DNA of 64,000 bases. It comes from Methanothrix soehngenii GP6. Its GTDB lineage: Archaea > Halobacteriota > Methanosarcinia > Methanotrichales > Methanotrichaceae. This document shows, in pieces, positions 46,843-50,866 of the stretch. A program made the position numbers and the translations under genes. Positions within the stretch are counted from its first letter, which is position 1. Each line of letters starts with the position of its first letter. Where the stretch lies: assembly GCF_000204415.1 (NCBI RefSeq), contig NC_015416.1, forward strand, positions 62,001-126,000, read 5' to 3'. Under the pieces are notes generated by a model. It was not told the DNA's origin. It was given only the letters and a program-made list of their open reading frames with translations, and searched no databases.

Positions 46843-48798
46843 TCAGGGAAACATGGCCACCAGCTCATAGACCCCGGAATCGCGCCTCTTGCTGACTGCA
46901 AAACCCATTTTTTTAAATAGATGGAATACGGGATCATTTCCTGCCAGGACCTCAGCGGTAAATCCGAGGAGCCCCTGCCTTTTCGCGAGGTATGTCAGAT
47001 ATGCCAAGAGCTCGCCTCCTATTCCATGGTTCTGGCAGTCATCCCTTACTACCAAAGCCACATCTGCGGTGAACATATCGCTGTTAATGCCATACTGGCC
47101 CAGGCCGCAGATGGACTCGATACCATCCTCTTCTACAGTTGCCACCAGAACCATCTTCTGGAAGTAATCCACCGCAGCAAACTTCTGAAGCTCCTGGTGG
47201 GGAATATCTCTCCGGGCGGAGATGAACCTCTGGTACATGCTCTCGTCGGACAGGGAGTAGAAGAAGTCTTTGAGAAGGGGCTCATCGCTGATCTTCACCG
47301 GCCGCAACAGGATTCCGAGACCCGTCCTGGTGGTCTTCCATGCCTCCAGCTCTTCCGGATACTCTCCCTGCACTCCGGGAATGAAGGCTTGGTCCGGATA
47401 GATCAGATGCATCCTCTTAGCCTCCTCAATCAACCAGAGGCGGAATAAGGGATGAGCGATGGCGATTAGGGCCATGGCTCTCTCTCGGATGCTCTTTCCA
47501 TGTAGATAGGCGATACCGTATTCAGTTACCACATAATGAATATCTCCCCTAGTCAATGTGACCCCTGCCCCCTCCCCAAGGAATGGAACTATTCGGGAGA
47601 CTCGTCCCCCTTTCTGGGAAGCCTCATCATCTGAGGAATCAGCGCAGGTGACTAGAGCGGTAGAGGGCAGAGCGAGGACGGTCTTTCCTCCTGGTGCAAT
47701 AGCCGTGCCCCTCATGAAATCGGCCTGGCCGCCAATACCGCTATAGAAGCTATGGCCCAAAGACTCTGCTGTGGCCTGGCCGGTGAGATCGATCTCCAGG
47801 GCGCTGTTGATAGCTATCATTTTGCTGTTCTGGGCGATGATCAGGGGGTTGTTGGTGTAGTCGATGGTCCTGAACTCTATGCTATCGTTATTTCGCAGAA
47901 AATCATATGTCGAGCGGTGGCCCATGCAGAAGGTGGCGATGGTCTTTCCAGGATTGATGCTTTTATTGCTGTTGTCCACCACCCCATCCCTTATGAGCCC
48001 GGCTATGCCATCGCTCAGTAGCTCAGAATGCACCCCTAGATGCTTTTTCTTCTTCAGGCTGGAGACGATGGCATTGGGAATGCTGCCGTATCCCACCTGG
48101 ATGGTCGAGCCGTCTTCCACTATTCTAGCCACATATTTTCCTATTCTCTGGGCGATCTCACCTGGGACATCCTCTATGTACTCCAGAAGGGGCTCATCCC
48201 AGGGGATCAGATAGTCCACGTCGTCCATCCGGATCCAGCCATCGCCATTAATGGCGGGCATATGAGAGTTGGGCTGGGCGATGACTATTCCCGCTTTCTC
48301 CACCGCCGTGCGGACGATATCGACGCTCACTCCCAGGTTCAATCTGCCATCCTTGTCCGGCAGGGTGGTCTGGATGAGGGCCACATCCAGCGGTATTCTC
48401 TCCGATCGGATCAGCTGGGGAAGATTGGAGAGGAATATGGGGGTATAATCAGCTTCGCCCCGATTGACGGCGTTTCTAGTATGGTCGCCTATGAAAAAGG
48501 AGTTGAGCCGAAAGTTGCTCTGGAACTTCTCGTCCGTGTATGGTGCCACCCCAAGGGTGACTATGTTTATGAGCTCAGCGTCAAGAAAGGCTTTGGGTCG
48601 CTCTTTGACGAATTCAAGAAGCGATCTGACCAGATGCTGGGGCTCCCCGCAACCTGTTCCCACGAATATCCTGTTGCCGGGGCGAATTTCCTGGAAGATG
48701 AAGCGCTCCAGATCTCTGAACTTGCCCGGCCACTTTTCCTTGATATCATGCCAGAAGGCTTCTCTATCATATGATTCTGAATTGAGTGATTCCTGCAT
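46843..48798 (-). CDS. Acetyl-CoA hydrolase/CoA-transferase family protein fused to a GNAT domain
   Basis: 651 residues. Residues to about 480 form the two-domain Cat1-type CoA transferase: RPGNRIFVGTGCGEPQHL, LGVHSELLSDG (candidate catalytic Glu), SGIGGQADFMRGTAIAPGGK and VVTEYGIAYLHGKSIRERA. A GNAT acetyltransferase domain follows (about 500-651, DVALVVRDDCQNHGIGGELLAYL, EVLAGNDPVFHLFKKMGF). The fusion is known in bacteria and archaea. It would move CoA between acyl groups, possibly acetate, with the GNAT part sensing acetyl-CoA or modifying a protein; both are inferences. It has an AAGGAG ribosome-binding site, and its upstream region is cut short by a TnpB element. Confidence 0.9.
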   Translation of the reverse strand: MQESLNSESYDREAFWHDIKEKWPGKFRDLERFIFQEIRPGNRIFVGTGCGEPQHLVRSLLEFVKERPKAFLDAELINIVTLGVAPYTDEKFQSNFRLNSFFIGDHTRNAVNRGEADYTPIFLSNLPQLIRSERIPLDVALIQTTLPDKDGRLNLGVSVDIVRTAVEKAGIVIAQPNSHMPAINGDGWIRMDDVDYLIPWDEPLLEYIEDVPGEIAQRIGKYVARIVEDGSTIQVGYGSIPNAIVSSLKKKKHLGVHSELLSDGIAGLIRDGVVDNSNKSINPGKTIATFCMGHRSTYDFLRNNDSIEFRTIDYTNNPLIIAQNSKMIAINSALEIDLTGQATAESLGHSFYSGIGGQADFMRGTAIAPGGKTVLALPSTALVTCADSSDDEASQKGGRVSRIVPFLGEGAGVTLTRGDIHYVVTEYGIAYLHGKSIRERAMALIAIAHPLFRLWLIEEAKRMHLIYPDQAFIPGVQGEYPEELEAWKTTRTGLGILLRPVKISDEPLLKDFFYSLSDESMYQRFISARRDIPHQELQKFAAVDYFQKMVLVATVEEDGIESICGLGQYGINSDMFTADVALVVRDDCQNHGIGGELLAYLTYLAKRQGLLGFTAEVLAGNDPVFHLFKKMGFAVSKRRDSGVYELVAMFP

Positions 48799-48811
48799 TT
48801 CGAGCTCCTTG

Positions 48812-48990
48812 GTATTGATTATTATATCTGGTGACTACTCCCCTGCCTAGAAGACCGGGGCTTCTACGGATTTGATGCCGACAGATTGTAGTCCCAATCT
48901 GAGTATGTTGATTGCAGCATTCCAGTCTCGATCCATTGAAAGACCGCATTGAGGGCAATTGTGGACTCGATCTGAAAGCGTCTTTCCGAC
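48812..48990 (-). ncRNA. Predicted omega RNA for TnpB (3' end and flank guide)
   Basis: In TnpB systems the guide RNA is processed from the 3' end of the tnpB transcript, includes the right-end hairpin, and carries the first 16-20 bases outside the element as guide. Here that flank is roughly 48830 down to 48812, directly in front of the CoA-transferase gene. The 5' boundary is a guess; only the element end is seen. Confidence 0.45.
48818..48828 (-). promoter_or_regulatory. TATA-like box at the TnpB element edge, upstream of CoA-transferase gene
   Basis: On the minus strand the sequence reads GATATAATAAT, ending about 20 bases before the ATG at 48798. It lies only a few bases outside the element's right end (48831). 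If used, the transcript would be nearly leaderless. Otherwise the gene depends on transcription coming through the TnpB gene. Confidence 0.3.
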
Positions 48991-50060
48991 TAGGATACCA
49001 CACCTAGAACACATCTTTGACGTATTTCTTGGATCTACTAAGACAACCATCGAACCGGCACTCTCAGCCTTGTACGAGGTCAGAGTCACAAGCATATTCC
49101 AAGCCACGTCTGAGATGGATTTTGCCAGGCAATGGTTTTTGAGCATATTTTGAATACTAAGATCTTCAAAAGCGATCAATCCGAACCTGTTAACCAGATA
49201 TCGACTAACCTTATGGGCAAAATCGTATCGCTTGTTAGCGATCCTTTCATGGACCCGCTCAACCATCCGAAGAGCTTTCTTTCTTTCTGGAGTGCCTTTC
49301 GGTGCTTTTGAGAGCTTCCTTTGGACTCTGGCGAGTTCCTTTTCCTCTTCTCGGAAAGTCTCACCATTGGAAAGAGTCGCAAAGCTTTCCAGACCAACAT
49401 CTACACCAACGAGAGAACCGACTTTCCAGGGAGGCTTAAGTTGATCTTCGATCTCCACAGAAAAGCAGGCAAACCATTTACCTGTCGCAGCTCTCCTTAC
49501 GGTCAGCCGTTTGATTTTGCCTTCTATGGATCTATGGAGCTTGATCTTGATATTACCAATCTTGGAAAGATAGAGCTTACCAGCATTTAGCTTGAACCCC
49601 TTCTGAGGATAGGTAAAAGAATCGTACCAACCTCTTCCCCGAAATCTTGGATATCCAGGATTCTCTCCGGCTTTGACTCTTCGGAAGAACGCCTTCAAGC
49701 CAAGATCCACCCTTTCCTGGGCATTCTGAAGGGTTTGGGAAAAGACATCGTTAAGTTCAGGCTTCTCTTCTTTCCAAGCTGGAAGAAGATTGTGCGTCTC
49801 GTACTTGGATACGGATTTGCCTTCTTTCTCCCAAGCATCTTTTCGGTATGCTAAGGTCTGATTGTATGTCCACCGGCATAGATCTATGGTCCTCTCCATC
49901 TTCGTCCTTTGGGACTTTGTTGGATAGATCCTAAATTTATATGCCTTGAGCATAGATACTTTTTATGCGGTTGATTGTGTTTATAGTTTTCTGCACAACG
50001 GTGGGGCACGATTCATCCCCTCCCCTGAAGGAGAGGGGTCTTCTCTGCCCCTACACCCCG
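48831..50060 (-). mobile_element. IS200/IS605-group element carrying only tnpB
   Basis: The right end is recognisable on the minus strand as GAAGCCCCGG...GGGGAGTAGTCAC, a hairpin typical for this group, ending at 48831. At the other side, a hairpin CCCCTCTCC-TTCA-GGGGAGGGG lies at about 50010-50040; the exact left boundary (about 50040-50060) is not certain. There is no terminal inverted repeat, as expected, and no tnpA, so the element cannot move alone. Confidence 0.75.
48847..49953 (-). CDS. tnpB: TnpB, RNA-guided nuclease of IS200/IS605 group
   Basis: 368 residues. Order: helical N-terminus (MLKAYKFRIYPTKSQ), the wedge region, then the split RuvC: Asp in GVDVGLESFATLSNG (about 204), Glu in LIAFEDLSIQNML (about 288), Asp in DRDWNAAINILRLG (about 350), and the zinc ribbon CSRCG...CPQCG between them. 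All catalytic residues are present, so it may be an active nuclease. TnpB is guided by the omega RNA from the element's 3' end and cuts the empty target site, favouring retention. The stop lies 16 bases inside the right end, so the omega RNA overlaps the gene's 3' end. Confidence 0.93.
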   Translation of the reverse strand: MLKAYKFRIYPTKSQRTKMERTIDLCRWTYNQTLAYRKDAWEKEGKSVSKYETHNLLPAWKEEKPELNDVFSQTLQNAQERVDLGLKAFFRRVKAGENPGYPRFRGRGWYDSFTYPQKGFKLNAGKLYLSKIGNIKIKLHRSIEGKIKRLTVRRAATGKWFACFSVEIEDQLKPPWKVGSLVGVDVGLESFATLSNGETFREEEKELARVQRKLSKAPKGTPERKKALRMVERVHERIANKRYDFAHKVSRYLVNRFGLIAFEDLSIQNMLKNHCLAKSISDVAWNMLVTLTSYKAESAGSMVVLVDPRNTSKMCSRCGILVGKTLSDRVHNCPQCGLSMDRDWNAAINILRLGLQSVGIKSVEAPVF

Positions 50061-50089
50061 ATGTTATTATTTGATTTGAAAGCTATTTA

Positions 50090-50866
50090 TTATCCGATGA
50101 TCTGCAGAAAGGCCTTGATCCGGGCAGATATGCGGGGGATCATTGTCTCATCTGGAGACGCTACTCGAATGCTGCATCCCTCCGCTCCGGCATACTCCAA
50201 TCCAATCCGGGAGAACTTGACGAAAAACTCGATGGATTGATCGCTAAAGGACGAAGGAATCTCTTTAGGGATGGTGGCCATCATGTGCCAGCATAATACC
50301 GTCCAGCCGAGACTTTTCGCAGTGCAGAAGATCTCCTCTGCCGCATCCTTTTCTTCTGGAGAAGTGAAAGGAGGATCTATAAAGAGAAGACCGGGAGAAG
50401 AACTCTTCAATAGGGACATAACACCAGAAAAGCCATCATCCAGATGAAACGATATAGGAGAATGATCGAGGCATTCATTCCAGGCCGCCCCGACTGCAGG
50501 ATCGATATCCCAGATATTGATCAAGAGATCCGCCTTCTTTCTCTTCGCTAGTTCTGCCACCAATAGGGCAGATCCAGGATAGAATTCTATCTGCAGAGAG
50601 CTAAGCGATTCGATGGAATTGAATTCCGCTAGAATATTGAAATAAGGAAAATCTTTTAGGAGAGGCAGAGCCGGCCAGATTCTGCCGATTCCGCTCTCCC
50701 AATCACCAGATGGCTTTAAGGCATATTTCGGGCGTCCTACATGGCTTTCTGCATAAACCAGGCTGCTATCGGGGGTGAGGAGGCAATTTGCCACCTCCAG
50801 CAACAGGAAATGCTTCCAGACATCGCCTGCATTGCCTACATGCGCTCTGTGATCGTAAGGGCCCAT
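50090..50866 (-). CDS. RlmJ-like rRNA adenine-N6 methyltransferase
   Basis: 258 residues. It starts MGPYDHRAHVGNAGDVWKHF, close to the RlmJ opening YRHxFHAGNxADVxKH, and has a catalytic FIDPPF motif (equivalent to the DPPY-type site) near residue 156. RlmJ methylates the N6 of A2030 in 23S rRNA. Whether this archaeal version has the same substrate is inferred. It shares one base with the upstream membrane-protein gene and is followed by the TnpB element. Confidence 0.78.
   Translation of the reverse strand: MGPYDHRAHVGNAGDVWKHFLLLEVANCLLTPDSSLVYAESHVGRPKYALKPSGDWESGIGRIWPALPLLKDFPYFNILAEFNSIESLSSLQIEFYPGSALLVAELAKRKKADLLINIWDIDPAVGAAWNECLDHSPISFHLDDGFSGVMSLLKSSSPGLLFIDPPFTSPEEKDAAEEIFCTAKSLGWTVLCWHMMATIPKEIPSSFSDQSIEFFVKFSRIGLEYAGAEGCSIRVASPDETMIPRISARIKAFLQIIG

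What the first reader, a model, noticed from the sequence alone, without database searches (positions are those of the whole stretch)
48798..49953. TnpB guide likely drawn from the leader of a CoA-transferase gene
Seen: a catalytically complete tnpB without tnpA ends 32 bases before the ATG of a CoA-transferase-GNAT gene on the same strand. Known: the omega RNA guide is the first 16-20 bases outside the right end. Inference: the guide therefore equals the TATA/leader of this metabolic gene, and the transposon transcript runs into the gene. The nuclease could protect the insertion by cutting empty alleles, and the RNA could influence expression of the downstream gene.
Basis: partly seen in the sequence, partly recalled or inferred. 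Interest (0 to 1): 0.6.

Follow-up and report, generated by a model that had tools for sequence, protein, structure and literature searches.

The report
Ordinary TnpB insertion before CoA-transferase gene
A common jumping-gene element carrying an RNA-guided nuclease sits just in front of a metabolic gene in a methane-making archaeon, so its guide sequence is borrowed from that gene's start; this is how all such elements work, and this copy is a patchwork that has lost a small conserved piece.

Summary
Anatomy confirmed, regulatory reading not supported. Aligning 45 TnpB right ends from the same genome (about 3.03 Mb, by size probably Methanothrix soehngenii GP6) fixes this element at 48831-50065, minus strand, ending ...GTCAC exactly 32 nt before the ATG of an acetyl-CoA hydrolase/transferase-GNAT gene. 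By the known TnpB rule the guide is CAGATATAATAATCAATACC, from that leader. This is ordinary: at least six other TnpB elements here also end within 100 nt of a same-strand ORF. The guide has no second match in the genome. At the occupied site it follows GTCAC, not the T(T/A)AT seen at left ends, so action on its own locus is unlikely; a sense guide also cannot pair with the sense mRNA.

(1) The copy is mosaic: about 1,000 bp are 98% identical to sister copies, the last 232 bp (C-terminus plus omega-RNA region) only about 83%. (2) Its TnpB keeps the D-E-D triad but lacks six residues, IANPRF, conserved in its close homologues; it may be impaired. (3) It occupies the place where relatives carry a K+-channel gene, absent from this genome. 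Recombination between two TnpB copies would explain (1) and (3) together but is not proven.

The parts
48831..50065 (-). IS200/IS605 (IS1341-type) tnpB-only element, 1235 bp, left end to right end
   Evidence: Ends defined by divergence of multi-copy alignments
50066..50069 (-). Candidate TAM / left cleavage site TAAT (TTAT in most sister copies)
   Evidence: T(T/A)AT precedes AAC in all eight left ends compared; the base before it varies. In L073, joining the flanks with one TTAT restores an open reading frame
50001..50064 (-). Left-end imperfect palindrome (GGGGCA...CCCCTCTCC TTCA GGGGAGGGG...TGCCCC)
   Evidence: Sequence and sister copies
48847..49953 (-). tnpB, 368 aa; RuvC D185, E263, D343 present; lacks IANPRF after about residue 199
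48831..49062 (-). Divergent module of the mosaic: TnpB C-terminus (zinc finger, third RuvC Asp) plus omega-RNA region; breakpoint near 49063
   Evidence: About 98% to sister copies left of the breakpoint, 82.5-84% right of it, Fisher p 4e-20 to 4e-14
48840..48860 (-). Right-end hairpin CCCCGGTC-TTCTA-GGCAGGGG, last scaffold stem of the predicted omega RNA
   Evidence: 7 of 8 pairs standard here; compensatory changes across copies
48811..48830 (-). Predicted guide CAGATATAATAATCAATACC
   Evidence: First 20 nt outside the right end; its last 19 nt occur once in the genome with up to 3 mismatches
46843..48798 (-). Acetyl-CoA hydrolase/transferase-GNAT gene, ATG at 48798, SD-like AAGGAG upstream
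   Evidence: Pfam; orthologues in most genus genomes
50090..50866 (-). RlmJ/RsmJ-like methyltransferase gene upstream of the element; in relatives followed by a K+-channel gene and then the CoA-transferase
   Evidence: Pfam PF04378; synteny

Best explanation
This is an ordinary tnpB-only IS200/IS605 (IS1341-type) element, one of about 46 TnpB loci in the genome, that lies in the leader of a CoA-transferase gene. Its omega RNA would carry a 16-20 nt guide read from that leader. If active, it would act as published for other TnpBs: cut the TAM-plus-guide donor joint left after excision, so that repair restores the element. It does not regulate the neighbour through this guide. The copy is a recombinant (5' 1.0 kb of one sub-lineage, 3' 0.23 kb of another) and its TnpB has a six-residue deletion, so it may be impaired. 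Shown: ends, gene order, mosaic structure, deletion, absence of the K+-channel gene. Inferred: guide use, TAM, activity, and how the mosaic arose.
For: Sharp common right end in 45 of 46 loci. Left ends share T(T/A)AT. Right-end hairpin with compensatory changes across copies. Homology to ISDra2 TnpB, E 9e-59, with D/E/D aligned in 19 TnpBs. Guide unique in the genome. At least six other elements end within 100 nt of a same-strand ORF. Consistent mosaic breakpoint at 49063 against four sister copies. IANPRF missing only in this copy among the close homologues aligned. K+-channel gene between RlmJ and the CoA-transferase in relatives, absent here; the closest orthologue in the tree, G024, has it.
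Against: No RNA data; no Rfam family matches the element. The exact empty site was not found in any of the 25 other genus genomes held. Two of eight left ends (this one and L072) have TAAT instead of TTAT, so the TAM is an inference. Most codon differences from the sister copies are synonymous (30 against 12), so the protein was under selection until recently, which argues against long-standing decay.
Confidence: 0.85

Rival explanations
1. One reading: the omega RNA or the transcript running out of tnpB controls CoA-transferase expression (promoter supply by read-through, or cleavage of the joint transcript during omega RNA processing).
For: Same strand, 32 nt apart, and the mapped guide overlaps the leader. 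TnpB makes omega RNA from its own mRNA by 5' processing (PMC10278001). An SD-like AAGGAG before the ATG, with similar sites in relatives, suggests a leadered mRNA that would have to start inside or upstream of the element.
Against: A TATA-like ATATAATA remains outside the element, about 28 nt before the ATG, so an independent, nearly leaderless start is possible. There is no TAM next to the guide at the occupied locus, the guide is sense to the mRNA, and relatives show no conserved leader. [quoted passage not shown]
Confidence: 0.15
2. Domesticated TnpB (TldR-like): a nuclease-impaired TnpB kept for RNA-guided repression of a promoter.
For: The six-residue deletion in the RuvC region could weaken cleavage while the rest of the protein stays intact; TldRs are TnpBs with an inactivated nuclease domain that became associated with host genes (PMC13418256).
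Against: RuvC D/E/D retained. No second target in the genome. Of the relatives' CoA-transferase loci examined, only one (G008) has a TnpB remnant directly upstream, and from another family. Both transposon ends are still present.
Confidence: 0.03
3. For the origin of the mosaic: gene conversion in place. One older element in front of the CoA-transferase gene had its 5' 1.0 kb overwritten by a recent sister copy; the K+-channel gene was lost independently.
For: Sister copies 98-99% identical to each other are present. The channel gene is scattered in its presence across the genus (five changes needed, at least three forced by well-supported branches).
Against: Does not explain why the recombinant element sits exactly where the channel gene is missing.
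Confidence: 0.45

Closest known systems
ISDra2 TnpB / reRNA (omega RNA) system
   Same: HTH, RuvC D/E/D, zinc finger; right end marks the scaffold end, guide taken from the flank; phmmer E 9e-59 over nearly the full length
   Different: No tnpA in cis; TAM inferred as T(T/A)AT rather than TTGAT; right end GTCAC; lacks the NPK-containing stretch that ISDra2 TnpB has
Haloarchaeal IS200/IS605 elements with sense overlapping transcripts (sotRNAs, Rfam RF02656/RF02657; cited in PMC12558985)
   Same: Archaeal tnpB-containing elements with an RNA overlapping the 3' end of tnpB
   Different: No Rfam match here; expression in this archaeon unknown
TldR, TnpB-like nuclease-dead repressors (PMC13418256)
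   Same: TnpB-derived protein near a host gene
   Different: RuvC residues intact, no second guide target in the genome, no conserved association

Membership tests
IS200/IS605, IS1341-type (tnpB only) | TnpB domains (PF12323, PF01385, PF07282) | tested here: met
IS200/IS605, IS1341-type (tnpB only) | RuvC D, E, D and zinc-finger cysteines | tested here: met
   D185, E263, D343 and C315/C318/C333/C336 invariant in 19 sequences
IS200/IS605, IS1341-type (tnpB only) | Subterminal hairpins and sharp ends shared by several copies | tested here: met
IS200/IS605, IS1341-type (tnpB only) | Insertion 3' of a short fixed target motif | tested here: inconclusive
   T(T/A)AT at eight left ends; no empty allele of this element seen
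IS200/IS605, IS1341-type (tnpB only) | No tnpA in the element | tested here: met
   Y1_Tnp matches lie elsewhere in the genome
Active TnpB nuclease | Intact protein core | tested here: inconclusive
   Catalytic residues present but IANPRF deleted
Active TnpB nuclease | Omega RNA made and target cut | not testable with these tools
   needs RNA sequencing and in vitro cleavage
TldR | Inactivated RuvC catalytic residues | tested here: not met
TldR | Guide matches a promoter elsewhere in the same genome | tested here: not met
   only the occupied site matches within 3 mismatches

The most novel reading that the evidence does not exclude
Two related TnpB elements, one behind the RlmJ gene and one in front of the CoA-transferase gene, recombined inside tnpB, deleting the K+-channel gene between them and producing a hybrid nuclease whose C-terminus and omega RNA come from one lineage and whose body comes from another: a natural case of omega-RNA module exchange coupled to gene loss.
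Probability: 0.35. Interest if true: 0.4.

Novelty: new member of a known kind. Interest (0 to 1): 0.25.

Why it matters
It shows that guide-from-flank anatomy can be read reliably in an archaeal genome with dozens of TnpB loci, and that lying next to a gene is not by itself evidence of regulation. The mosaic structure suggests that TnpB elements can exchange the protein's C-terminus together with the omega RNA as one block, and that recombination between copies may remove genes; both can be tested by sequencing more strains.

Tried and rejected
Rfam search of the element: no match. Search for the empty site: I found no genus genome in which RlmJ and the CoA-transferase gene are direct neighbours without an intervening gene, so the junction could not be read directly. 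Search for a close source of the 3' module: none in the genus (best full-length match outside this genome 78%, inside it 84-88%). Regulation in trans: no second guide match. A hotspot in front of the CoA-transferase gene: one other genome (G008, L052) has a remnant of a different TnpB family 26 nt before the orthologous ATG; suggestive but a single case. TnpB as the cause of channel-gene loss: the channel gene is scattered on the tree, so an association cannot be claimed.

Full report
OBSERVATION. The tnpB ORF lies at 48847-49953 on the minus strand and the CoA-transferase gene at 46843-48798 on the same strand. Pfam finds the three TnpB domains in the first, and acetyl-CoA hydrolase/transferase plus GNAT domains in the second. 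The genome is 3,026,645 bases in two contigs; from its size I take it to be Methanothrix soehngenii GP6, from memory, not from a tool. It has 49 matches to the TnpB TNB domain, about 46 loci, and a few Y1 transposase genes elsewhere.

ENDS. A DNA search with the element finds sister copies that match from query position 30-34 to 1270-1271, i.e. window 50071-48830. Right ends of 45 of 46 loci stop at a fixed ...GTCAC, GTTCAC, GTTTAC or GTTGAC, beyond which the sequences differ. Here that is 48831, leaving 32 nt (48799-48830) before the ATG. Left ends in the closest group begin AACGTCGGGG after T(T/A)AT; the base before that varies. In one sister copy, joining the flanks with a single TTAT restores an open reading frame, as expected for an insertion after this motif (L073). 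The right-end hairpin is supported by compensatory changes across copies; 7 of 8 pairs are standard in this copy.

GUIDE. In TnpB systems the guide is the sequence just outside the right end (PMC8612924; PMC10278001), so here CAGATATAATAATCAATACC. Its last 19 nt occur once in the genome even with 3 mismatches allowed. At the occupied site it is preceded by GTCAC, not T(T/A)AT. If a TAM is needed, as for ISDra2 (PMC8612924), the complex should not act on its own locus; it would recognise the joint formed by excision. The guide is the same strand as the mRNA, so it cannot act as antisense (inference from orientation).

NOT SPECIAL. Listing ORFs of 120 aa or more downstream of every right end, at least six other elements end within 100 nt of a same-strand ORF start (loci 1762555, 792827, 1529755, 2662425, 1168330, 2699251). 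These ORFs are mechanical, not curated.

MOSAIC. Against four sister copies the element is 97.6-98.6% identical over the first 1,001 compared positions and 82.5-84.2% over the last 234, with the same best breakpoint (element bp 1002, window 49063) each time; Fisher p 4e-20 to 4e-14, not corrected for choosing the breakpoint (alignment). Over the whole tnpB, 30 codons differ synonymously and 12 change the residue, so the divergent part looks like another functional lineage rather than decay. No close source of the 3' module was found in the genus. The predicted omega RNA lies wholly in this module.

DELETION. Relative to its sister copies the protein lacks IANPRF, an 18-nt in-frame loss. The NPR core is present in the other full-length members of this TnpB branch in the genome and in three from other genomes, and ISDra2 TnpB has NPK at the same place. 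The catalytic residues are intact. Activity is therefore open.

GENE LOSS. In several relatives the order is RlmJ - K+ channel with RCK domains (about 550-565 aa) - CoA-transferase, all on one strand (the channel is named from my reading of its sequence, including the TLGYGD filter motif). The channel is 66-74% identical to the query across the genus genomes that have it in full, and is missing from this complete genome, whose best matches are weak and local. In a tree of the CoA-transferase this genome pairs with G024, which has the channel (support 94/89). The simplest reading is loss in this lineage, but the gene is scattered, with at least three changes forced. Recombination between two elements flanking the channel gene would explain both the hybrid element and the loss; gene conversion plus an independent loss explains them as well.

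PROMOTER. Upstream of the ATG there is an SD-like AAGGAG and, about 28 nt away, a TATA-like ATATAATA that lies outside the element. Several relatives also have purine-rich SD-like sites but no conserved leader sequence. Whether the gene is transcribed from its own start or from tnpB cannot be decided from sequence.

VERDICT. The regulatory suggestion lacks support. The element is a new copy of a known kind, with two small points of interest: it is a natural mosaic at a gene-loss site, and its nuclease may be impaired.

Noticed in passing
L052:490-674 (genome G008), CoA-transferase start just after: Remnant of a different TnpB family ends 26 nt before the ATG of the orthologous CoA-transferase gene; that genome also has no strong match to the K+-channel gene (best E 1.2e-5).
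   Followed up: partly
L096 (G000:C1:2078245-2078303 match): A left end and a right end about 100 bp apart with no tnpB between them: a mini-element of the MITE/PATE kind.
   Followed up: no
G000:C1:671674-672036 and 733609-733971: Two Y1 tnpA genes next to related tnpB genes whose right ends also finish GGTCAC, possible suppliers of transposase in trans; their left ends look different.
   Followed up: partly
L144:1292-2989: K+ channel with RCK domains between RlmJ and CoA-transferase in relatives, absent from this genome.
   Followed up: yes
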